A stretch of DNA of 64,000 bases. It comes from Gaiella sp. GTDB taxonomy: Bacteria; Actinomycetota; Thermoleophilia; Gaiellales; Gaiellaceae. A model generated the notes under the pieces. That model was given only the letters and a program-made list of their open reading frames with translations, was not told the origin of the DNA and searched no databases. This document shows positions 617 through 19,422 of this stretch, piece by piece. The position numbers and the translations under genes were made by a program. The stretch covers positions 1,550,001-1,614,000 of the forward strand of contig JAOSJZ010000001.1 of assembly GCA_027493885.1 (NCBI GenBank). Direction: 5' to 3'. The first letter of the stretch is position 1; every line of letters starts with the position of its first letter.

Positions 617-1027
617 ATGGCACAGCCGAGCCCCGACCTGATCCGCGGCATCCCGATCTTCTCCGATCTCGACGACCCGTCGATCTCCCAGCTCGCGACC
701 GACTTCATCGAGCGCGAGTTCGAGGCCGGCCAGGCGATCGCGACGGAGGGCGAGGGAGGGCTCAACTTCTTCGTCGTCGAGAGCGGCACCGCCGACGTGT
801 CGGTGGGCGGCAAGCAGGTCGGATCGCTCGGGCCGGGCGCGTCGTTCGGCGAGATCGCCCTCGTCGACAAGTCGGCTCGCTCGGCGACCGTCACGGCGAC
901 CTCGCGCCTGCGTGCCTTCGCGCTTCCCGTGTGGAGCTTTCGGAGCTTCGCGGAGTCCCGTCCGACCGTGACGTGGAAGCTGCTCGAGCTGCTCGCGGAG
1001 CGGCTCCGCGCCGCCGAGCAACGGTAG
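617..1027 (+). CDS. Stand-alone cyclic-nucleotide-binding domain protein
   Basis: This 136-residue protein is essentially one Crp-like cNMP-binding jelly roll. The phosphate-binding cassette is visible as FGEIAL at residues 77-82, with the conserved arginine near residue 88 in KSARSATV. The upstream glycine-rich turn is VVESGTADVSVGG. There is no HTH or catalytic domain, so it probably works as a sensor that binds a partner. It sits directly before an ECF sigma factor. A second cNMP domain occurs 4.5 kb downstream, fused to an MFS transporter at 4270-5946, which suggests a shared ligand. The ATG at 617 is preferred over upstream in-frame starts because the domain begins here. Confidence 0.85.
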   Translation: MAQPSPDLIRGIPIFSDLDDPSISQLATDFIEREFEAGQAIATEGEGGLNFFVVESGTADVSVGGKQVGSLGPGASFGEIALVDKSARSATVTATSRLRAFALPVWSFRSFAESRPTVTWKLLELLAERLRAAEQR

Positions 1028-1039
1028 GAGCCGGCCGCG

Positions 1040-1627
1040 GTGGACGCCGCGTCGGATGCCGAGCTGGTCGAGCGCTGCCGCGCGGGCGACGACGTCGCCT
1101 GGGCGGCGCTCGTCGATCGCTACGCCCGCTATGTGCACGCAATCCTGACGCGCGTCTACCGCCTCGGGCAACACGACGCCGAGGACGTGTTCCAGGAGGT
1201 CTTCGCACGGATCTTCGAGCGGCTCGACACGCTTCGCGACACCGATGCGCTGCGGCCGTGGATCGCCCAGACCGCCCGCAACTGCGCGGTCGACGCGCTC
1301 CGCCGCTCCGGGCGCGAGGTGCCCGTCGACGAGGTTCCCGAGGGCGCAGACGACGGTCTCGCGCGGCTCGACGAGGCGCTCACGGTGCACGCGGCGCTCG
1401 ACCGGCTCTCGCCCGAGTGCCACGAGATCCTCGACCGCTTCTTCTGCCGGGACGAGAGCTACCGCACGATCGGGGCCGAGCTCGGGCTCCCCGCGGGCAC
1501 GATCGCGAGCCGGATCGCGCGCTGCCTCTCGCGCCTTCGCGACGTCCTCGATCCCGGCGCGGGGAGAGCCCGGGGAAGAAAGTCGGCCCCTTCGACGTCG
1601 GGTATGCAGGTGGAAGAACGACGATGA
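1040..1627 (+). CDS. ECF-type RNA polymerase sigma factor
   Basis: This 195-residue sigma-70 family factor has region 2 at about residues 8-75 (DVFQEVFARIFERL and LRPWIAQTARNCAVDALRR) and region 4 at about 115-165 (LSPECHEILDRFF through TIASRIARCLSRLRDVL). There is no region 3, as in ECF factors. The start is GTG at 1040, 12 nt after the previous stop. The stop overlaps the next ATG (ATGA at 1624). No recognisable anti-sigma factor follows; the next product is a small helical protein that could play that role, but this is only an inference. Target promoters cannot be assigned from the sequence. Confidence 0.9.
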   Translation: MDAASDAELVERCRAGDDVAWAALVDRYARYVHAILTRVYRLGQHDAEDVFQEVFARIFERLDTLRDTDALRPWIAQTARNCAVDALRRSGREVPVDEVPEGADDGLARLDEALTVHAALDRLSPECHEILDRFFCRDESYRTIGAELGLPAGTIASRIARCLSRLRDVLDPGAGRARGRKSAPSTSGMQVEERR

Positions 1628-1869
1628 CGCCCGAGGAACGAATCGCCGAGCTCCTGCGTGCCGTGCCCGCGCCGCCACAGGGATGGGTGGAGGCCGCGAA
1701 GGAGCTGCCCCGGACGAGCCGGGAGCTGGACGCGATCCTCGAGCGCGTCGAGCAGGCAGAGCGTCTGCGCGAGCTCGCCGTCCGCGAGCTCGAGGAGCTG
1801 CTCCGCGCCGAGGGCGTCGAGCCGACGCCGGCCGTCGTCTCCCACCTGCGCCGCCGTCTCGCGTCGTGA
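1624..1869 (+). CDS. Small acidic helical protein of unknown function
   Basis: This 81-residue protein, starting MTPEERIAELLRAVPAPPQGW, overlaps the sigma-factor stop (ATGA) and the following GTG (GTGA), so it is translationally coupled on both sides. Residues 1-40 are proline-containing and residues 35-80 are a predicted charged amphipathic helix (ELDAILERVEQAERLRELAV). There is no signal peptide, membrane segment or cysteine. I do not recognise a family. Its place right after an ECF sigma factor makes a regulatory partner possible, but no zinc-anti-sigma motif (HxxxCxxC) is present. Confidence 0.75.
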   Translation: MTPEERIAELLRAVPAPPQGWVEAAKELPRTSRELDAILERVEQAERLRELAVRELEELLRAEGVEPTPAVVSHLRRRLAS

Positions 1870-2444
1870 CGGCCGCGACGACGGGGCTCCAGCTCGCGGC
1901 GCTTCCGGTCGGACGCCTGCACGACGTGCTCGCGCAGGCCGGGCCGGGGCCTGCCGGCGGATCCGCTGCCGCGATCGCCACCACGATGGCGTCCGGCCTC
2001 GTCCGCCTCGTCGCCCGCGTCTCGCACGAGTGGGAGGAGGCACCGGGCATCGCGGCGCAGGCCGCCGCGCTCGGCGACCGGTCGCTCGAGCTTGCGGACG
2101 AGGACCACCGCGCGTACGCGCACGCCGTCGATCAGCTGCGTGCGCCCGACCGCGACGCCGCGCTCGGAAGAGCGCTGCGCCGCGCGGCCGAGATCCCGCT
2201 CCTGATCGCCGAGGCGGCCGCGGACGTCGGCGCGCTCGCGGCCCTTGCTGCCCGGGAGGGCGAGGAGTCCGTCCGCGGAGACGCGTGGGCGGCCGCGACG
2301 CTCGCGGAGGCGGCCGGGGTCGCGGCGGCGCGGCTCGTCCACGTGAACCTCTCGACCCGGCCCGACGACGAGCTCTCGACGCGAGCCGAGCTCGCCGCAC
2401 GCTCGGCCACCGCGGCACGCGAGGTGGCCCTCGCCGCCACGTGA
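1866..2444 (+). CDS. Cyclodeaminase/cyclohydrolase (FTCD_C) family protein
   Basis: This 192-residue, almost wholly helical protein matches the C-terminal domain of formiminotransferase-cyclodeaminase. The N-terminal signature AGPGPAGGSAAAIATTMASG (residues 25-44) is the family's glycine-rich folate-binding loop. Stand-alone members are usually methenyltetrahydrofolate cyclohydrolases or formiminotetrahydrofolate cyclodeaminases acting in one-carbon metabolism. No histidine-degradation gene lies nearby, so the cyclohydrolase role is the safer guess. The GTG start at 1866 overlaps the previous stop, and its own stop overlaps the next GTG at 2441. Confidence 0.82.
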   Translation: MTAATTGLQLAALPVGRLHDVLAQAGPGPAGGSAAAIATTMASGLVRLVARVSHEWEEAPGIAAQAAALGDRSLELADEDHRAYAHAVDQLRAPDRDAALGRALRRAAEIPLLIAEAAADVGALAALAAREGEESVRGDAWAAATLAEAAGVAAARLVHVNLSTRPDDELSTRAELAARSATAAREVALAAT

Positions 2445-3256
2445 GCACGCGCCCGGTCCCAGCCTGGAGCCTGCCGCCCGGGGACGCGCCGCGGGTTGAG
2501 GCGGACCCTGCCTGGCGCGCCGCCGTCACCCGCGACTGGGCGATCGGCGGCTCGAGAGGGGACGTCGACGTCTGCATCGTCGACAGCGGCGTCGACCCGG
2601 CACATCCGCTCGTCCGTCCGGTGGCGAGCGCGCATGCGGTCGTGCGCAAGGGCGACGAGGTGGGGATCGTCGCCGACGAGGTCGGCGACGTATGCGGCCA
2701 TGGCACGGCGTGCGCGGGCATAGTCCGGGCGCTCGCTCCCGACTGCCGGCTGCACAGCGTCCGCGTCCTCGGCCAGGGAGCGACGGGCGCGGCGGACCTG
2801 ATCCTCGCCGGTCTCCGGCACGCGGTCGAGGCAGAGCACCGGGTGATCAGCCTGAGCCTCTCGACGACGAAGCGCCGCTTCGCGGAGGAGCTGCACGAGC
2901 TGGCCGACCTCGCGTACTTCGAGCGGACGATCCTCGTTGCCTCCGCACACAACCTGCCGGTCGACAGCTACCCCTGGCGGTTCTCGTCGGTGATCTCGGT
3001 CGGCAGCCACGAGGAGCGTGACCCGCTCGTCTGGTACGCAAACCCCGACCCGCCGGTCGAGCTCTTTGCGCGCGGCGTGGATGTCGAGGTCGCCTGGCCC
3101 GGGGGCGGGACGCTGCGCTGCACGGGGAACAGCTTCGCGGCGCCGCACGTGGCCGGCATCGCCGCGCTCGTTCTCGCGAAGCACCCGGAGCTGACGCCGT
3201 ACCAGCTGAAGAGCGTGCTGCACCTGACGGCGACGAACGCAGGAGGATCGACATGA
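2441..3256 (+). CDS. Subtilisin-like (S8) serine protease, no signal peptide
   Basis: This 271-residue protease has a complete S8 catalytic set: Asp48 in CIVDSGVD, His87 in GHGTACAG, Ser231 in GNSFAAPHVAG, and Asn171 (SAHNLP) as the likely oxyanion residue. It begins with MSTRPVPAWSLPPGD and shows neither a signal peptide nor a recognisable propeptide, so it is probably cytosolic. That is unusual, because most subtilases are secreted. It is coupled by 4-nt overlaps to the cyclodeaminase-like gene and to the GAF gene (preceded by an AGGAGGA ribosome-binding site at 3241). Cytosolic subtilases often process specific peptides. A repeat-bearing small peptide is encoded convergently at 3979-4167, but a link between the two is only a hypothesis. 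Confidence 0.9.
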   Translation: MSTRPVPAWSLPPGDAPRVEADPAWRAAVTRDWAIGGSRGDVDVCIVDSGVDPAHPLVRPVASAHAVVRKGDEVGIVADEVGDVCGHGTACAGIVRALAPDCRLHSVRVLGQGATGAADLILAGLRHAVEAEHRVISLSLSTTKRRFAEELHELADLAYFERTILVASAHNLPVDSYPWRFSSVISVGSHEERDPLVWYANPDPPVELFARGVDVEVAWPGGGTLRCTGNSFAAPHVAGIAALVLAKHPELTPYQLKSVLHLTATNAGGST

Positions 3257-3904
3257 GCGACGAGACGGAGGCGCGCGGCGCCGCGGCCGCGGGGATGCTC
3301 GGCGGGGACGAGAACACCTTCCGTGAGCTCCTGCAGTCGATCGTCGACGTCGCGCGCACGATCTTCGGCGGCGAGGCCGCCTCGATCTTCCTCCTCGACG
3401 GCGAGGCGGACGAGCTCGTGTTCGAGGCCGTCTCCGGCCAGGGCGAGGAAAGCCTCGTGGGCTCGCGCTTCCCCCTCGAGCACGGGCATCGCGGGCTTCG
3501 CGCTCTTCACCCGCCAGCCGATCGTCGTGGACGACCTCGCGTCCGACCCCCGCTTCTCGCAGGAGCGCGCCGAGACGACCGGCTACGTACCGTCGAGCAT
3601 CGTCGCGTCGCCGCTGCTCCACGGCGAGCGAGCGCTCGGCGTGCTCTCGGTGCTCGACCGGGCCGCCGACCGGCCGTTCGGGTTGAGCGAGCTCGAGCTC
3701 CTCTCCCGCTTCTCGACGCAGGCCGCGATCGGCCTCGATCTCTTGCTCCGGGCGCGCGGCGCGCGAGCGGCGATCGCCGGCGACGGCACCGGCGGCCTCG
3801 TCGCCCGCGTCGCGGCGCTGCTCGAGGAGGCGGACGACGACGCCGGTCGCCGTCTCCTCGAGGCGCTCGAGCAGGTGCTCGCGGGTCGCACGGCCAAGGC
3901 GTGA
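3253..3904 (+). CDS. GAF-domain sensor protein, single-base frameshift
   Basis: The gene starts at ATG 3253 with an excellent AGGAGGA Shine-Dalgarno. The first 77 codons read MSDETEARGAAAAGML through SRFPLEHG, and the GAF domain then continues one frame over as GIAGFALFTRQPIVVDDLASD, SSIVASPLLHGERALGVLSVLDR and FSTQAAIGLDLLLRAR. Removing one G from the GGG at 3484-3486 gives an intact 216-residue protein with one GAF domain at about residues 20-175 and a helical tail. No output domain is present. It is the last gene of the coupled operon and probably senses a small ligand. The frameshift looks like a run-length error because the rest is well conserved. Confidence 0.8.
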
Positions 3905-3912
3905 CCGGAAGC

Positions 3913-3940
3913 GGAGACGGCGCCGGGAGGCGCCGTCTCC
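3913..3940 (+). terminator. Strong GC hairpin after the GAF gene
   Basis: Perfect 12-bp arms GGAGACGGCGCC (3913-3924) and GGCGCCGTCTCC (3929-3940) enclose a GGGA loop, 9 bp past the GAF stop. There is no T-tract, as is common in high-GC actinobacteria. It lies between convergent genes and could end transcription from both sides. Confidence 0.7.
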
Positions 3941-3978: not shown

Positions 3979-4167
3979 TCAGCCGACGTCGACCGGGCCG
4001 CCGGTGTCGACCGGGCTGCGCCCGACGTCCACGGGGCCGCCCACGTCCACGGGGCTCCGGCCTACGTCCACGGGGCTACCGGTCTCCAGCATGTGCCCCT
4101 CGAAGTCCTCGCCCTCGGTCGCCTCGTCCGCCTCGTCGAGGTCGATCTTCTCGCGCTCGTCCGACAC
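3979..4167 (-). CDS. 62-residue acidic peptide with five C-terminal PVD(V/T)G repeats
   Basis: A strong Shine-Dalgarno (AGGAGG, minus strand, 4178-4173) lies 5 nt before a GTG start at 4167. The product has a very acidic first half (residues 1-24, with EGEDFEGHML at 18-27). A repeat region at 31-62 has units SPVDVGR, SPVDVGG, PVDVGR, SPVDTGG and PVDVG. Repeat codons differ synonymously (CCC GTG GAC versus CCG GTC GAC), so the repetition seems kept at protein level. There is no signal peptide or membrane segment. The leader-plus-repeat form resembles multi-core precursors of modified peptides, but no known modifying enzyme is adjacent. It is divergent from the MFS-cNMP transporter and convergent with the subtilase operon. 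Its function is unknown. Confidence 0.75.
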   Translation of the reverse strand: MSDEREKIDLDEADEATEGEDFEGHMLETGSPVDVGRSPVDVGGPVDVGRSPVDTGGPVDVG

Positions 4168-4206
4168 CGTTGCCTCCTTTTGCCGTGACACCCGTGCGGG
4201 CATCCT

Positions 4207-4260
4207 CACCCCACCCGACGTGCGAGCGGGATGAAATCTTCCCGCATTTCTGGTGGGGTG
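4207..4260. promoter_or_regulatory. Nested inverted repeats between divergent genes
   Basis: Outer arms CACCCCACC (4207-4215) and GGTGGGGTG (4252-4260) are a perfect 9-bp pair. Inside them lie GCGGGA (4226-4231) and TCCCGC (4240-4245). The structure sits between the repeat-peptide start (4167) and the transporter start (4270) and could be a shared operator or a transcript hairpin. It would fall inside the coding region if the upstream ATG at 4231 were used. Confidence 0.55.
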
Positions 4261-4269
4261 CGCAAGAGC

Positions 4270-5946
4270 ATGACCGGATACGCCTCGTCCGAGAGGGAGA
4301 GCCGCGCGCGAGCTGCCCTGCGCTCGCTCGGCGCCGTCGCCTCGAGCCCGGCGCTGCGCCGGCTGCAGCTCGCCTGGCTCGGCTCGATCCTCGGCAACTG
4401 GGCCTACCTCGTCGCGCTCGGCGTCTACGCGTACGACCAGGGTGGCGCCGCCGCCGTCGGCCTCGTCGGGCTCATCCGCCTGATTCCCGGCGCGCTCGTC
4501 TCGCCCTTCGCCGCAGCGCTGGTCGACCGGTACTCGCGGGTGGGCGTGATGGTTGCCTCGGACGTCGTCCGGGTCGTCCTGATGGCCCTCGCGGCGCTCG
4601 TGATCGCGACCGACGGGCCGGCGCCGGTCGTCTATGCCCTCGTGGCGCTGACGACGGCGGCGGGCACCGTCTTCCGGCCGGCACAGGCCGCGCTCCTGCC
4701 GTCGCTCGTATCGACGCCCGGGGAGCTGACGGCGTCGAACGCCGCAGCGAGCACGCTCGAGAGCGTGGGCACCTTCCTGGGCCCCGCGCTCGGGGGCGCG
4801 CTGCTGGCGGTCAGCGACCCTGCGACCGTGTTCGCCGCGAACGGGGCCACCTTCCTCTGGTCGGCGCTGCTCGTCCTCGGCCTGCGCGGGCGCGAGCAGC
4901 CCCGGGAGGCGCCGGAGCCGCCGGCCGGGCCCGCCGTAGGCGCCTCGAGCGGCGTCCTGGCGGGGATCACGACGATCGTGCGCGAGCCGGCGCTCCGCAC
5001 GCTCGTCGGCCTGTATGCCGCGCAGACGCTCGTCGCCGGTGCGCTCAACGTGCTCGTCGTGGTGACGTCGTTCGAGCTGCTCGGGCTCGACGATGCCGGC
5101 GTCGGCCTGCTCTACGCGGCCGTCGGCGTCGGCGGGCTGCTCGGCGGGCTCGTCGCGCTGCTTCTCGCCGCCCGGGGGCGTCTCGCCCGTGACTTCGCGA
5201 TCGGCCTCGCACTCTTCGGTCTCCCGCTCGCCCTGATCGGGGGCCTCCCCGTCTCCGTGGTCGCGGTCGTCGGGCTGGCGATCATGGGAATCGGCAACTC
5301 CATCGTCGACGTCAACGCGCTCACGATCATGCAGCGCGCCGTCCCCGACGCGGTCCTCGGCCGTGTGCTCGGGGCGCTCAACGGGCTGCTCCTCGCGACG
5401 CTCGGCCTCGGCGCGCTCGTCGCTCCCGCCCTGATCGCGCTGACCAGCACGGAAGCCGCGCTCGTCGTGACGGGCGCGCTGCTGCCGGTGCTCGTGCTGT
5501 TCGCGCGCCCACGGCTCCGCGCGCTCGACCGTGCGACCGGGGCGCCGGAGGCGACCGCGCTGCTCCGCCGGGTGCCGTTGCTCGCCGCGCTGCCGGAGGC
5601 CGTGCTCGAGCGGCTTGCGCGCGAGGCGGTGCACGCGAGGTTCGCGGCGGGCACGCCGATCATCCGCGAGGGAGACGTCGGCGACCGGTTCTACGTCGTC
5701 GAGTCGGGATCGGTCGAGATCCGCGGCCGGCGCTTCGGCGCGGGCGACTCGTTCGGCGAGATCGCGCTCCTGCGCGACGTCCCGCGAACGGCGACGGCGA
5801 TGGCCGTGACGGACGTCCGCGCCCTTGCGCTCTCGCGCGACCCGTTCGTCGCCGCGGTCACCGGCCACGCGCCGAGCGCCGCGGCGGCCGACACCGTGAT
5901 CGCGGCGCGGCTCGGCTCCTTCAGCGTCGGGAACGCCCCTCTGTGA
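4270..5946 (+). CDS. MFS transporter with C-terminal cyclic-nucleotide-binding domain
   Basis: This is a fusion of about 558 residues. The first ~420 residues form a 12-helix MFS permease of the EntS/macrolide-efflux type (LQLAWLGSILGNWAYLVALG, PGALVSPFAAALVDRYSR, ALLPSLVSTPGELTASNAA). The last ~120 residues are a Crp-like cNMP-binding domain (LLAALPEAVLERLAREAV, FYVVESGSVEIRG, FGEIALLRDVPRTATA). The domain should be cytosolic and may gate or sense transport. Start choice: ATG 4270 (MTGYASSERESR) is preferred, since ATG 4231 would translate the nested inverted repeat; neither has a strong Shine-Dalgarno. The 3' end overlaps the convergent membrane-protein gene by 26 bp. The substrate is unknown; its divergent partner encodes the repeat peptide. 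Confidence 0.85.
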   Translation: MTGYASSERESRARAALRSLGAVASSPALRRLQLAWLGSILGNWAYLVALGVYAYDQGGAAAVGLVGLIRLIPGALVSPFAAALVDRYSRVGVMVASDVVRVVLMALAALVIATDGPAPVVYALVALTTAAGTVFRPAQAALLPSLVSTPGELTASNAAASTLESVGTFLGPALGGALLAVSDPATVFAANGATFLWSALLVLGLRGREQPREAPEPPAGPAVGASSGVLAGITTIVREPALRTLVGLYAAQTLVAGALNVLVVVTSFELLGLDDAGVGLLYAAVGVGGLLGGLVALLLAARGRLARDFAIGLALFGLPLALIGGLPVSVVAVVGLAIMGIGNSIVDVNALTIMQRAVPDAVLGRVLGALNGLLLATLGLGALVAPALIALTSTEAALVVTGALLPVLVLFARPRLRALDRATGAPEATALLRRVPLLAALPEAVLERLAREAVHARFAAGTPIIREGDVGDRFYVVESGSVEIRGRRFGAGDSFGEIALLRDVPRTATAMAVTDVRALALSRDPFVAAVTGHAPSAAAADTVIAARLGSFSVGNAPL

Positions 5947-17913: not shown

Positions 17914-17963
17914 GATGGCGGGATGGCGGGTGGCGGGTCGGCGGGTCGGCGGGTCGGCGGTGG
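17914..17963. repeat. 8-bp-period minisatellite between purF and purM
   Basis: The 252-bp gap 17788-18039 holds no convincing gene. Its middle is a run of about six imperfect 8-bp units: GATGGCGG twice, then GGCGGGTC-type units. It is likely slippage-prone. The gap also has a short C-rich stretch near 17988-18035. Confidence 0.6.
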
Positions 17964-18039
17964 TATGCCGCAGGCTGCCGCCACGCTCCCGGGGGCAGGC
18001 CTCCCTCTCACCCGTCCCGTCTCTTGCCCCCGTCCGTCT

Positions 18040-19422
18040 TCAGCGCGCCGCCGTCTCGAAGCGGTGCTTCGCGGCAGGCCCGTTGGCCGGCACGCGCGTG
18101 GGGTAGCTGCGCGTGAAGCACGCGCGGCAGACGTCCTCCCCGGGAATGCCGGTCGCCCACTGCATCCCCTCGAGCGAGAGGTACCGCAGGCTCGTGGCGC
18201 CGACGTGCTCGCGCATCTCCTCGACGGAGCGGTGGGCGGCGGCGAGCTCCGCCTCGTCGGCCATGTCGATCCCGTAGAAGCAGGGAGAGACGACGGGAGG
18301 CGACGAGATGCGCACGTGCACCTCGGCTGCGCCGCCGTCCTCGAGCATCTGGACGAGCGCGCGCATCGTGTTGCCGCGGACGATCGAATCGTCGACGATC
18401 GCGAGTCGCTTGCCGGCGATCTCGTCGAGCGGGTTGAACTTGAGCCGGATCCCCTGGCGGCGGAGCTCCTGGTCGGGCTCGATGAACGTCCGGCCGACGT
18501 AGCGGTTCTTGATCAGCCCCTCCTCGAACGGGATCCCGGAGCGCTTCGCGAAGCCGATCGCAGCGGGCGTGCCGGAGTCCGGGATCGGCATCACGAGGTC
18601 GGCTTCGACCGGCGCCTCCTCGGCGAGGCGCTCCCCCATCCGCACCCGCGCGGCGTGGACCCCGGTGCCGCCGAGCGTCGAGTCGGGGCGCGCGAAGTAG
18701 ACGTGCTCGAAGATGCACGCGGCGTGCCGGCCGCGCGGAACCGCCTGCGCGGAGTGACAGCCGTCCTCGTCGACCCATACCACCTCGCCCGGGAGCACGT
18801 CGCGAACGACGTCGGCGCCGACAAGGTCGAGCGCGCACGTCTCGGAGGCCACGACCCAGTCCTCGCCGATCCGCCCGAGCGTGAGCGGGCGGATCCCGAA
18901 CGGGTCGCGAAACGCGACCAGCGTCCCGTCTGCGACCGCGACGATCGAGTAGGCGCCGTCGAGCCTACGCATCGCGGCCCCGACCGCCTCGGGCAGCGGC
19001 GCCGGGTCGCGGCCGAGCAGCGCGGCGATCACCTCCGTGTCCGAGGTGGAGGCGATCCGTACGCCCGACGCGAGGAGCTCGTCGCGCAGCGGGGCCGGGT
19101 CGACGAGGTTCCCGTTGTGCGCCAGCGCCACCGTGCGGGCTGCGCCGTGGTGGACGAGCGGCTGGGCGTTCGACCAGTGGGCGCCGCCGGTGGTCGAGTA
19201 GCGCGTGTGGCCGATCGCGACCTCGCCGGGAAGCGCCGCGAGCTTCTCCTCGTCGAACACCTGCGGGACGAGCCCCATCTCGCGGAGCGCCGTGACCCGT
19301 CCGTCGTCGGAGACGGCGATCCCGGCGGACTCCTGACCGCGATGCTGGAGGGCGAAGAGACCGAAGTAGGCGAGCCGCGCGACGTCGCGCTCGCGTGAGC
19401 GGATGCCGAAGACGCCGCACAT
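18040..19422 (-). CDS. purF: Amidophosphoribosyltransferase
   Basis: This 460-residue enzyme catalyses the first committed purine step. The N-terminal nucleophile is Cys2 directly after Met (MCGVFGIRSRERD), so there is no propeptide. The glutaminase region has ALQHRGQESAGIAV, and the PRPP-binding loop is LAIVDDSIVRGNTMRAL. C-terminal cysteines in SPCFYGIDM and DVCRACFTRSYPT match the iron-sulfur-cluster type of PurF. The ATG at 19422 overlaps the purL stop by one base (TGATG). The enzyme is normally feedback-inhibited by purine nucleotides. Confidence 0.95.
   Translation of the reverse strand: MCGVFGIRSRERDVARLAYFGLFALQHRGQESAGIAVSDDGRVTALREMGLVPQVFDEEKLAALPGEVAIGHTRYSTTGGAHWSNAQPLVHHGAARTVALAHNGNLVDPAPLRDELLASGVRIASTSDTEVIAALLGRDPAPLPEAVGAAMRRLDGAYSIVAVADGTLVAFRDPFGIRPLTLGRIGEDWVVASETCALDLVGADVVRDVLPGEVVWVDEDGCHSAQAVPRGRHAACIFEHVYFARPDSTLGGTGVHAARVRMGERLAEEAPVEADLVMPIPDSGTPAAIGFAKRSGIPFEEGLIKNRYVGRTFIEPDQELRRQGIRLKFNPLDEIAGKRLAIVDDSIVRGNTMRALVQMLEDGGAAEVHVRISSPPVVSPCFYGIDMADEAELAAAHRSVEEMREHVGATSLRYLSLEGMQWATGIPGEDVCRACFTRSYPTRVPANGPAAKHRFETAAR

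What the first reader, a model, noticed from the sequence alone, without database searches (positions are those of the whole stretch)
3979..5946. Leader-plus-repeat peptide beside a cNMP-gated MFS transporter and a cytosolic-subtilase operon
A 62-residue peptide with a strong ribosome-binding site has an acidic leader and five PVD(V/T)G units whose codons vary synonymously. It is divergent from an MFS transporter fused to a cNMP-binding domain. Just across a terminator lies an operon with a second cNMP-binding protein, an ECF sigma factor and a subtilase without signal peptide. Multi-core modified peptides (for example cyanobactins) use leader-repeat precursors, subtilases and exporters. Here the link is positional inference only; no cyclase, lanthipeptide synthetase or ATP-grasp gene is adjacent.
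Basis: partly seen in the sequence, partly recalled or inferred. Interest (0 to 1): 0.75.

Follow-up and report, generated by a model that had tools for sequence, protein, structure and literature searches.

The report
Repeat peptide cut by cytosolic subtilase
A tiny, fast-changing bacterial peptide is encoded beside a protein-cutting enzyme and a membrane exporter in dozens of related bacteria and seems to be switched on with them, which suggests an unrecognised way of making and perhaps exporting custom peptides.

Summary
The 62-aa peptide is real (3979-4167, -) and lies where described. By whole sequence it looks like an orphan, but it is not. In 22 of 22 loci (own plus 21 in relatives) where the subtilase and MFS-cNMP genes are linked, the gap holds a small SD-preceded ORF, divergent from the MFS, with D-[V/F]-E-[A/G/L]-H. 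Family members carry one to five such motifs and are otherwise hypervariable. PVDxG is this species' filler; the conserved element is DFEGH (residues 21-25). An ECF-type promoter, GGGAAGAT-N15-CGTCTAG, precedes 54-58 of 60 peptide genes and, in 22 of 34 loci, the p81-FTCD-subtilase side. In this genome it also precedes a third gene, outside the window, with DFEAH at a domain junction. The subtilase keeps its catalytic residues and has homologs inside aroma-sacti RiPP clusters, whose precursors carry E-V-Q-A-H just before the presumed core. DVEAH fits the register of known S8 RiPP cleavage sites (PatA G(L/V)E(A/P)S; CylA GDVQAE). Best reading: an ECF-controlled precursor-peptide system in which the subtilase cuts after DxEAH and the MFS-cNMP protein exports product. 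Cleavage, export and product function are inferred. The peptides have no Cys and no tailoring enzyme was seen, so it is not shown to be a RiPP.

The parts
617..1027 (+). cNMP-binding-domain protein, 136 aa, head of the ECF operon
   Evidence: PF00027 E 2.7e-15; FGEIAL..ARSAT
1040..1627 (+). ECF sigma factor, presumed reader of the shared promoter
   Evidence: PF04542/PF04545, TIGR02937 above cut-off; conserved at the locus
1574..1599 (+). ECF-type promoter GGAAGA-N16-CGTC inside the ECF 3' end, before the 81-aa gene
   Evidence: 22 of 34 loci with the 81-aa gene; 25 of 34 with a looser pattern; 9 without
1624..1869 (+). 81-aa conserved protein (p81); two homologs resemble the NHLP clan below cut-off
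   Evidence: homologs NF038399 33.5 of 40 bits, PF14407 37.8 of 48 bits; the window copy itself has no hit
1866..2444 (+). FTCD_C (cyclodeaminase/cyclohydrolase-like) protein
   Evidence: PF04961 E 5e-23
2441..3256 (+). S8 subtilase, 271 aa, no signal peptide or propeptide seen; D48, H87, S231 and oxyanion N171 present
   Evidence: PF00082 E 7.7e-29; aligned to subtilisin BPN' from residue 38 to 270; residues located; no hydrophobic stretch in the first 40 residues
3253..3904 (+). GAF-domain protein, split by a frameshift near 3480-3490 in this assembly
3913..3940 (.). 12-bp hairpin between the convergent GAF and peptide genes
3979..4167 (-). the peptide: 62 aa, acidic N-part, one DFEGH, then PVD(V/T)G repeats
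3982..4074 (-). species-specific PVD(V/T)G repeat stretch (residues 32-62), part of the presumed product
4093..4107 (-). D-F-E-G-H (residues 21-25), the conserved motif and predicted subtilase site (cut after H25)
   Evidence: register compared with PatA/CylA/LicP sites
4217..4242 (-). ECF-type promoter GGAAGAT-N15-CGTC of the peptide gene
4231..5946 (+). MFS transporter fused to a C-terminal cNMP-binding domain (start may be the ATG at 4270)
   Evidence: PF07690, PF00027; FGEIALLRDVPRTAT

Best explanation
The peptide is a precursor belonging to a conserved, ECF-sigma-controlled peptide-processing system. The ECF factor (1040-1627) transcribes both the p81-FTCD-subtilase-GAF genes and the divergent peptide gene from the same promoter type. 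The cytosolic subtilase recognises D-[V/F]-E-[A/G/L]-H (P5-P1) and cuts after His, releasing the species-specific stretch that follows (here MLETGSPVDVG...PVDVG). Most relatives carry two or more such modules with similar followers. The product, or smaller pieces of it, is exported by the MFS protein, whose activity is set by a cyclic nucleotide through its C-terminal domain. Shown by computation: gene linkage, shared promoter sequence, motif conservation with hypervariable followers, intact catalytic residues, and subtilase-GAF homologs in RiPP clusters. Inferred: that the neighbouring ECF reads the promoter, the cut and its position, export, cNMP gating, and a species-specific signal or effector role for the product.
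For: (1) Linkage: 22 of 22 loci with subtilase and MFS-cNMP genes on one contig have the SD-preceded motif ORF in the gap, divergent from the MFS. The two genes co-occur (26 both, 2 and 3 singly, 30 neither, of 61 genomes; Fisher 1e-11, phylogeny not corrected). (2) Promoter: strict motif before 54 of 60 peptide genes (58 of 60 looser), 0 of 12,000 mononucleotide-shuffled upstreams; before p81 in 22 of 34; 83 hits in 907 kb of loci against 1 for the reversed pattern. (3) Independent check in the own genome: of 18 motif-pattern sites only two have the promoter within 400 nt upstream, the window peptide and a 362-aa protein with DFEAH at the end of its N-part followed by a hydrophobic stretch and repeats. 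(4) Concerted modules: the 10 aa after the motif are 48% identical within a peptide (n=90) against 9.5% between loci (n=8122), 0 of 1000 permutations, the pattern of multi-copy cores. (5) Subtilase-GAF homologs sit beside radical SAM and aroma-sacti precursors ending E-V-Q-A-H-(G/S)EIAGGALF. (6) Motif register: PatA cuts after G(L/V)E(A/P)S, CylA removes GDVQAE, LicP NDVNPE (passages of PMC10885120). (7) Miltoncostaea oceani, recorded as a pure culture, has the operon, the promoter and two promoter-preceded proteins with [E/T][T/S]EAH (8) or ETQAH (2) units.
Against: No cleavage, product or transport data exist. MFS proteins are not usual exporters of 30-60-aa peptides (recalled), so export of the whole product is doubtful. 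The window peptide has a single motif. Of 11 fetched MFS-cNMP paralogs without a nearby subtilase, only 2 have the divergent motif ORF (L155, L156), 1 has one past its 3' end (L152), and 8 have none found, one of these (L151) with only about 300 nt upstream. G001 keeps the peptide but has no MFS at the site. The subtilase pocket signature (SAHNxPV[E/D]S[Y/F]PW[R/K]F) marks the xEAH lineages, but three subtilases paired with DVEAH peptides have A or R at the acidic site, and the xEAH subtilases are one clade (32 of 58 rows used), so the correlation is one event. The p81 promoter was not found in 9 of 34 loci. 'Cut after H' rests on analogy.
Confidence: 0.6

Rival explanations
1. The peptide is a regulator, not a substrate: an intrinsically disordered decoy or propeptide-like inhibitor of the cytosolic subtilase (which shows no propeptide), or a regulator of the ECF factor or the MFS protein. 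Repeated DxEAH motifs would raise avidity and the filler would be neutral.
For: The subtilase has no room for a propeptide (its match to BPN' starts at residue 38 of 271). Only the motif is conserved and the rest looks like slippage-prone filler. One promoter type precedes both. The peptide can persist without an adjacent MFS.
Against: Concerted similar followers within a peptide are not expected of neutral filler, although slippage could produce them. The same motif lies between an N-part and a hydrophobic stretch in larger proteins under the same promoter and just before the presumed core of aroma-sacti precursors, which fits a processing site better.
Confidence: 0.17
2. The peptide is an ordinary disordered stress or metal-binding protein that happens to share the ECF regulon; the subtilase has other targets.
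For: Median 31% acidic residues, 6% His overall, no Cys and very few aromatics.
Against: His content outside the motif varies from rich to none while D-x-E-x-H stays. Fixed divergent position next to the MFS gene. Subtilase homologs sit in RiPP clusters.
Confidence: 0.13
3. A true RiPP: the follower is modified (for example macrocyclised) by enzymes encoded elsewhere, with p81 (NHLP-like) as a scaffold or recognition protein.
For: Two p81 homologs hit NHLP-clan models below cut-off; the subtilase occurs in radical SAM clusters.
Against: No Cys in 60 peptides, so no lanthionine, thiazole or sactionine chemistry. No maturase is seen among the genes scanned at the window; relatives' loci were only compared with the window's genes.
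Confidence: 0.08
4. The peptide ORF is not expressed, or its resemblance is a chance low-complexity match.
For: Whole-sequence search finds only low-complexity coincidences.
Against: Position, SD and in-frame motif in 22 of 22 loci, promoter in 54-58 of 60.
Confidence: 0.01

Closest known systems
Cyanobactin system: precursors cut by the S8 protease PatA after G(L/V)E(A/P)S (PMC10885120, passages; multi-core layout recalled)
   Same: S8 subtilase; a five-residue recognition motif of similar character (x-V-E-A-x); repeated motif plus variable follower; several copies per precursor
   Different: No PatG macrocyclase or heterocyclase seen, no Cys; motif ends in His; MFS-cNMP protein; ECF promoter; TIGR03895 (PatA/PatG) only weakly matched (32.7 bits, cut-off 421)
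Lanthipeptide S8 proteases CylA, LicP, ElxP (PMC10885120, passages)
   Same: S8 proteases; CylA and LicP remove GDVQAE or NDVNPE stubs, the same kind of P5-P1 sequence; ElxP is cytoplasmic
   Different: No lanthionine synthetase seen; no Cys in the peptides
NHLP/NHLM RiPP systems (TIGR03793, TIGR03796/7; PMC2887384, passages)
   Same: Two p81 homologs weakly resemble NHLP-clan peptides; locus L204 pairs a GAF-subtilase homolog with an ABC exporter fused to a cNMP domain
   Different: p81 scores below curated cut-offs; exporter here is MFS
aroma-sacti clusters (NF045560; StsA-related)
   Same: Homologous subtilase (54-57% identity) plus GAF, a nucleotide cyclase (scanned in L202), precursor ending E-V-Q-A-H then a short tail
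   Different: Radical SAM maturase and aroma-sacti leader domain, neither found at the window locus
QhpE, subtilisin-like protease of quinohemoprotein amine dehydrogenase (NF049966), and T7SS mycosin (TIGR03921)
   Same: The two best NCBIfam matches of the subtilase (92.4 and 101.1 bits); QhpE is also a small subtilase
   Different: Both below cut-off (165 and 278.75); no Qhp or type VII partners among the genes scanned here
ECF-sigma-controlled specialised-metabolite clusters in actinomycetes, e.g. antimycin (titles and abstract starts listed); planosporicin recalled
   Same: A pathway-specific ECF factor transcribing biosynthetic genes
   Different: Different products; the promoter sequence here was derived here

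Membership tests
RiPP (general) | Genetically encoded precursor with a conserved recognition part and a variable core | tested here: met
   Conserved D[V/F]E[A/G/L]H, hypervariable followers
RiPP (general) | Post-translational modification by a dedicated tailoring enzyme | tested here: inconclusive
   No tailoring enzyme among the window genes scanned; relatives' loci were compared only with the window's genes; enzymes in trans not excluded; no chemistry data
RiPP (general) | Proteolytic removal of the leader | not testable with these tools
   Predicted from the motif register and the neighbouring subtilase; needs an assay
Cyanobactin | PatA/PatG-family proteases | tested here: not met
   TIGR03895 32.7 bits against cut-off 421
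Cyanobactin | Core between G(L/V)E(A/P)S and AYDG, heterocyclised or macrocyclised | tested here: not met
   No YDG in any of 60 peptides and no Cys; chemistry itself not testable
aroma-sacti sactipeptide cluster | aroma_sacti domain precursor and radical SAM maturase | tested here: not met
   Peptides: no NCBIfam hit in 28 of 28; no radical SAM among the window genes scanned; both present in L202 and L203
NHLP/NHLM system | NHLP leader above curated cut-off and NHLM exporter | tested here: not met
   p81 homologs 33.5 of 40 and 37.8 of 48 bits; window p81 no hit; exporter is MFS
S8 subtilase | Intact Asp/His/Ser triad and oxyanion Asn in a subtilisin catalytic domain | tested here: met
   D48, H87, S231, N171; aligned to BPN' over residues 38-270. 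The single-sequence fold prediction was too poor to use
cNMP-binding domain | PF00027 with a conserved phosphate-binding Glu and Arg | tested here: met
   FGEIALLRDVPRTAT and FGEIALVDKSARSAT; meaning of the motif recalled; binding itself not tested

The most novel reading that the evidence does not exclude
DxEAH is a general intracellular leader-removal code of a protease-gated secretion system. The same ECF regulon makes two precursor classes. Short acidic multi-module peptides leave through the MFS-cNMP exporter. Larger or hydrophobic proteins (own genome G000:C1 about 1086596; L304, L252) carry DFEAH/DVEAQ directly in front of G[L/M][K/R]E plus a hydrophobic stretch that reads like a Sec signal peptide, so the subtilase cut would unmask an export signal. 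The followers diversify fast and in concert, as expected of species-specific signals or effectors.
Probability: 0.3. Interest if true: 0.87.

Novelty: new variant of a known kind. Interest (0 to 1): 0.74.

Why it matters
It defines a peptide family that whole-sequence similarity cannot see: 28 of 28 members tested have no NCBIfam hit and no convincing Pfam hit. It supplies a promoter and motif by which to find it, and assigns likely substrates to an orphan cytosolic subtilase. The cleavage-site prediction is exact and cheap to test, and the system occurs in a species in pure culture (Miltoncostaea oceani). If right, it is a peptide-making and possibly secretion route in poorly studied bacteria, and a source of cleavable multi-copy peptide scaffolds.

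Tried and rejected
Whole-sequence homology: the genome search gave only noise in 60 relatives apart from the own copy; one weak row there (G005, E 0.78) later proved to be the true neighbour peptide. In genome contigs, 2 of 448 pattern stretches passed tblastn and both are low-complexity coincidences: a myxobacterial protein with PVDTG linkers (L032) and an antisense frame of a regulator gene (L033). Rejected.

PVDxG as the conserved unit: rejected; 1 of 60 peptides has it. Lanthionine, thiazole or sactionine chemistry for the short peptides: rejected, 0 of 60 contain Cys.

The G286 hits of the profile search were dropped as unconvincing: long frames, no subtilase at L211/L212. f36 loci L208-L210: subtilase homologs without a recognisable peptide. 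Extending the f19 layout (DxEGQ repeats, L206): only 1 of 27 genomes of that order has the subtilase, so it stands alone.

Pocket covariation: the xEAH subtilases are one clade (100/98; 32 of the 58 collected rows were used), so the motif-pocket correlation counts once, and three members break the acidic position.

Promoter regulon: of 20 further promoter-like sites fetched in relatives, only two are followed by a motif ORF by my listing (L304, L310); others precede p81-like or unrelated genes or look like chance.

Structure prediction of the subtilase from one sequence: pLDDT 41.7, not used.

Literature: 'aroma-sacti' 0 papers. Multi-term searches listed nothing that looks like this system (listings, with passages read only of PMC10885120 and PMC2887384). 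DVEAH/DVEGH as text gave 14 papers, unrelated by title. Only the open part of PubMed Central was searched.
Full report
WHAT IS THERE. The window holds a 62-aa ORF at 3979-4167 (-), GTG start, AGGAGG at 4173-4178, sequence (M)SDEREKIDLDEADEATEGEDFEGHMLETGSPVDVGRSPVDVGGPVDVGRSPVDTGGPVDVG. The five PVD(V/T)G units differ at synonymous positions. It is divergent from an MFS gene with a C-terminal cNMP-binding domain (4231-5946) and convergent with an operon cNMP - ECF sigma - 81-aa protein (p81) - FTCD_C - subtilase - GAF (617-3904). Between them is a 12-bp hairpin without a T-run. The subtilase keeps D48, H87, N171 and S231 and aligns to subtilisin BPN' from residue 38 to 270; its first 40 residues hold no hydrophobic stretch, so I call it cytosolic. 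Its best NCBIfam matches, mycosin and QhpE, are below cut-off. The GAF gene is frameshifted in this assembly.

IT IS NOT AN ORPHAN. By whole sequence nothing usable was found. A pattern for D-[V/F]-E-G-H, however, hit the gap between the subtilase and MFS genes in several relatives. Among 61 genomes (own plus 60 relatives) the MFS-cNMP protein is found in 29 and the subtilase in 28: 26 have both, 2 and 3 have one, 30 neither (Fisher 1e-11, phylogeny not corrected). The 28 genomes give 31 subtilase places; in 22 of them the MFS-cNMP gene is on the same contig nearby, and 22 of 22 have an SD-preceded small ORF with the motif in the gap, on the strand opposite the MFS gene. The other nine are contigs that end before the MFS would come (G002, G003, G019, G021; G021 still shows the peptide), extra copies in G013 (three, of which two were not fetched wider), one homolog without these partners (G034), and G001, which keeps the peptide but has no MFS there. 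Loci drawn later by peptide profile add many more, but those were selected by the peptide and are not counted. The profile reached 47 of 299 genomes of the class at E<=0.001, all but one in two families of the same order; the exception (G286) is not convincing.

ANATOMY OF THE FAMILY. Sixty peptides of 44-122 aa contain 140 motifs: 3 with one (the window's among them), 39 with two, 14 with three, 3 with four, 1 with five. At the motif, position 1 is D (104) or E (36), position 2 V (121), F (14) or I (5), position 3 E (136 of 140), position 4 A (100), G (31), L (8) or T (1); His is fixed by the search expression. The MAFFT alignment of 28 shows H25 invariant and E23 nearly so, though its members had been picked with the motif. 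Followers are unrelated between species (AENVAENVAE, GNTDGNTD, VDRNADRN, KKHSQALNLEA, PVDVG), yet similar within one peptide: 10-residue identity 0.477 within (n=90) against 0.095 between loci (n=8122), 0 of 1000 permutations. Of 552 SD-preceded ORFs of 40-180 aa in these loci, 55 have at least two motifs and all 55 are these peptides. None of 60 has Cys; median acidic fraction is 0.31. None of 28 matched NCBIfam, and Pfam gave three single weak hits (best E 0.012).

CO-REGULATION. Upstream of the peptide genes lies GGGAAGAT-N15-CGTCTAG, a layout like that of ECF promoters (recalled): strict form in 54 of 60, looser in 58 of 60; the two misses are a truncated contig end and the second gene of a tandem pair; 0 of 12,000 mononucleotide-shuffled upstreams. 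The same element sits in the 3' end of the ECF gene before p81 (window 1574), in 22 of 34 loci with p81 (25 with a looser form; 9 without). Over 907 kb of loci there were 83 hits against 1 for the reversed pattern. In the own genome the element has 5 hits in one form, two of them at this locus, and 2 in another. One of the latter starts 74 nt before the ATG of a 362-aa protein at about G000:C1:1086596. That protein has a ~100-aa N-part ending HPDFEAH, then GMREL plus a hydrophobic stretch, then at least seven MDA(G/S)GGG-type repeats and a C-terminal hydrophobic segment. Of 18 motif-pattern sites in the own genome only this one and the window peptide have the promoter within 400 nt upstream. 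A homolog (L304, DVEAQ-GLRERMAIL...) and a shorter protein of similar build (L252, DFEAH-GLKEGIAVAL..., with AQA after the hydrophobic stretch) also follow the promoter. So promoter and motif find each other away from this locus too. Most of the 20 further promoter-like sites fetched in relatives are not followed by a motif ORF; several precede p81-like or unrelated genes.

DISTANT RELATIVES. The subtilase is found in 11 of 396 phylum genomes at E<=1e-40, own and one same-family genome included. In two large genomes (L202, L203) it is followed by GAF and lies in clusters with a radical SAM protein, a nucleotide cyclase/AAA protein (scanned in L202) and aroma-sacti precursors (NF045560, 75 bits, cut-off 30) that end E-V-Q-A-H-(G/S)EIAGGALF. 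L206 has the same layout as the window (subtilase, GAF, divergent peptide, MFS-cNMP) but repeats of D-[A/T]-E-G-Q. L204 pairs GAF-subtilase with an ABC exporter fused to a cNMP domain, on a contig with an NHLP-like peptide that scores below cut-off. Miltoncostaea oceani (plasmid NZ_CP064357.1) has FTCD_C - ECF - subtilase (55% identical) - GAF - promoter - p81 - MBL - MFS with a cNMP-type C-terminus (by reading), plus promoter-preceded WP_217924931.1 with eight [E/T][T/S]EAH units and WP_217924939.1 with two ETQAH units, and a kinase/cyclase fusion.

HOW IT MOST LIKELY WORKS. A review (PMC10885120, passages only) states that PatA-like S8 proteases cut after G(L/V)E(A/P)S, that CylA removes GDVQAE and LicP NDVNPE. 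D-[V/F]-E-[A/G]-H fits the same register: hydrophobic P4, acidic or amide P3, small P2. That subtilisin S4 is hydrophobic and S2 small is recalled knowledge. In the subtilases of xEAH lineages the S1 region reads SAHNxPV[E/D]S[Y/F]PW[R/K]F with few exceptions; in the DxEGQ locus it reads INNMPGPSFPAEY. This is one correlated change on the tree, not several, and three f2 members have A or R at the acidic site. I infer that the subtilase cuts after His, releasing the follower, and that the MFS-cNMP protein exports product under cyclic-nucleotide control. The own genome has 11 class III cyclase matches, and both cNMP domains keep the FGExAL...R-[T/S]-A-T signature. What the product does is unknown; fast, concerted, species-specific change suggests a signal or effector.

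AGAINST. There is no biochemical evidence. MFS export of peptides this long would be unusual (recalled). Of 11 fetched MFS-cNMP paralogs away from the subtilase, 2 have a divergent motif ORF, 1 has one past its 3' end and 8 have none found; two more paralogs with a motif ORF came in by promoter or profile (L310, L238). The window peptide has one motif. The assay in the next steps settles the first point.

NOVELTY. Each part is a known kind (S8 leader peptidases, cNMP-linked peptide exporters, ECF-controlled clusters), but this combination, the motif, the promoter and the peptide family match no library model tried and were not found in the paper searches made. I file it as a new variant of precursor-peptide processing, not as a RiPP, since modification is not shown.

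Noticed in passing
window 3253-3904: The GAF gene is broken by a frameshift near 3480-3490 in this assembly, while relatives' copies read in one frame; either a sequencing error or a recent lesion.
   Followed up: partly
window 1624-1869 and homologs (L309, L311:11590-11856): Two homologs of the 81-aa protein resemble NHLP-clan RiPP peptides below curated cut-offs (the window copy has no hit); it is itself preceded by the ECF promoter in 22 of 34 loci.
   Followed up: partly
L328:1207-2292 (own genome C1 about 1086596), L304, L252: A second class of promoter-preceded proteins has D[F/V]EA[H/Q] directly before G[L/M][K/R]E and a hydrophobic, signal-peptide-like stretch.
   Followed up: partly
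L204:140-463: NHLP-like peptide (below cut-off) with an aromatic, Cys-containing end (CWQCYMSYYWYWDYYSQTYYE) on the same contig as GAF-subtilase and an ABC-cNMP exporter.
   Followed up: no
L294, L307 and L292, L306, L308: Two further kinds of gene follow the same promoter type in relatives: proteins with a signal-like N-terminus and YGMPRAMPxDYALA-type segments (L294; L307 similar), and an N-terminus M[Y/S]Y[S/H]PxTHLAIA[H/R].
   Followed up: no
L149:1020-1256, L207:10096-10365: Small ORFs near subtilase homologs of the other clade contain DVAGF or ETAGY, possibly that clade's recognition motif.
   Followed up: no
L311:2156-2713 and 17945-18253: Both Miltoncostaea xEAH/xQAH proteins end in SDVRLKxxIRAV.
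   Followed up: no
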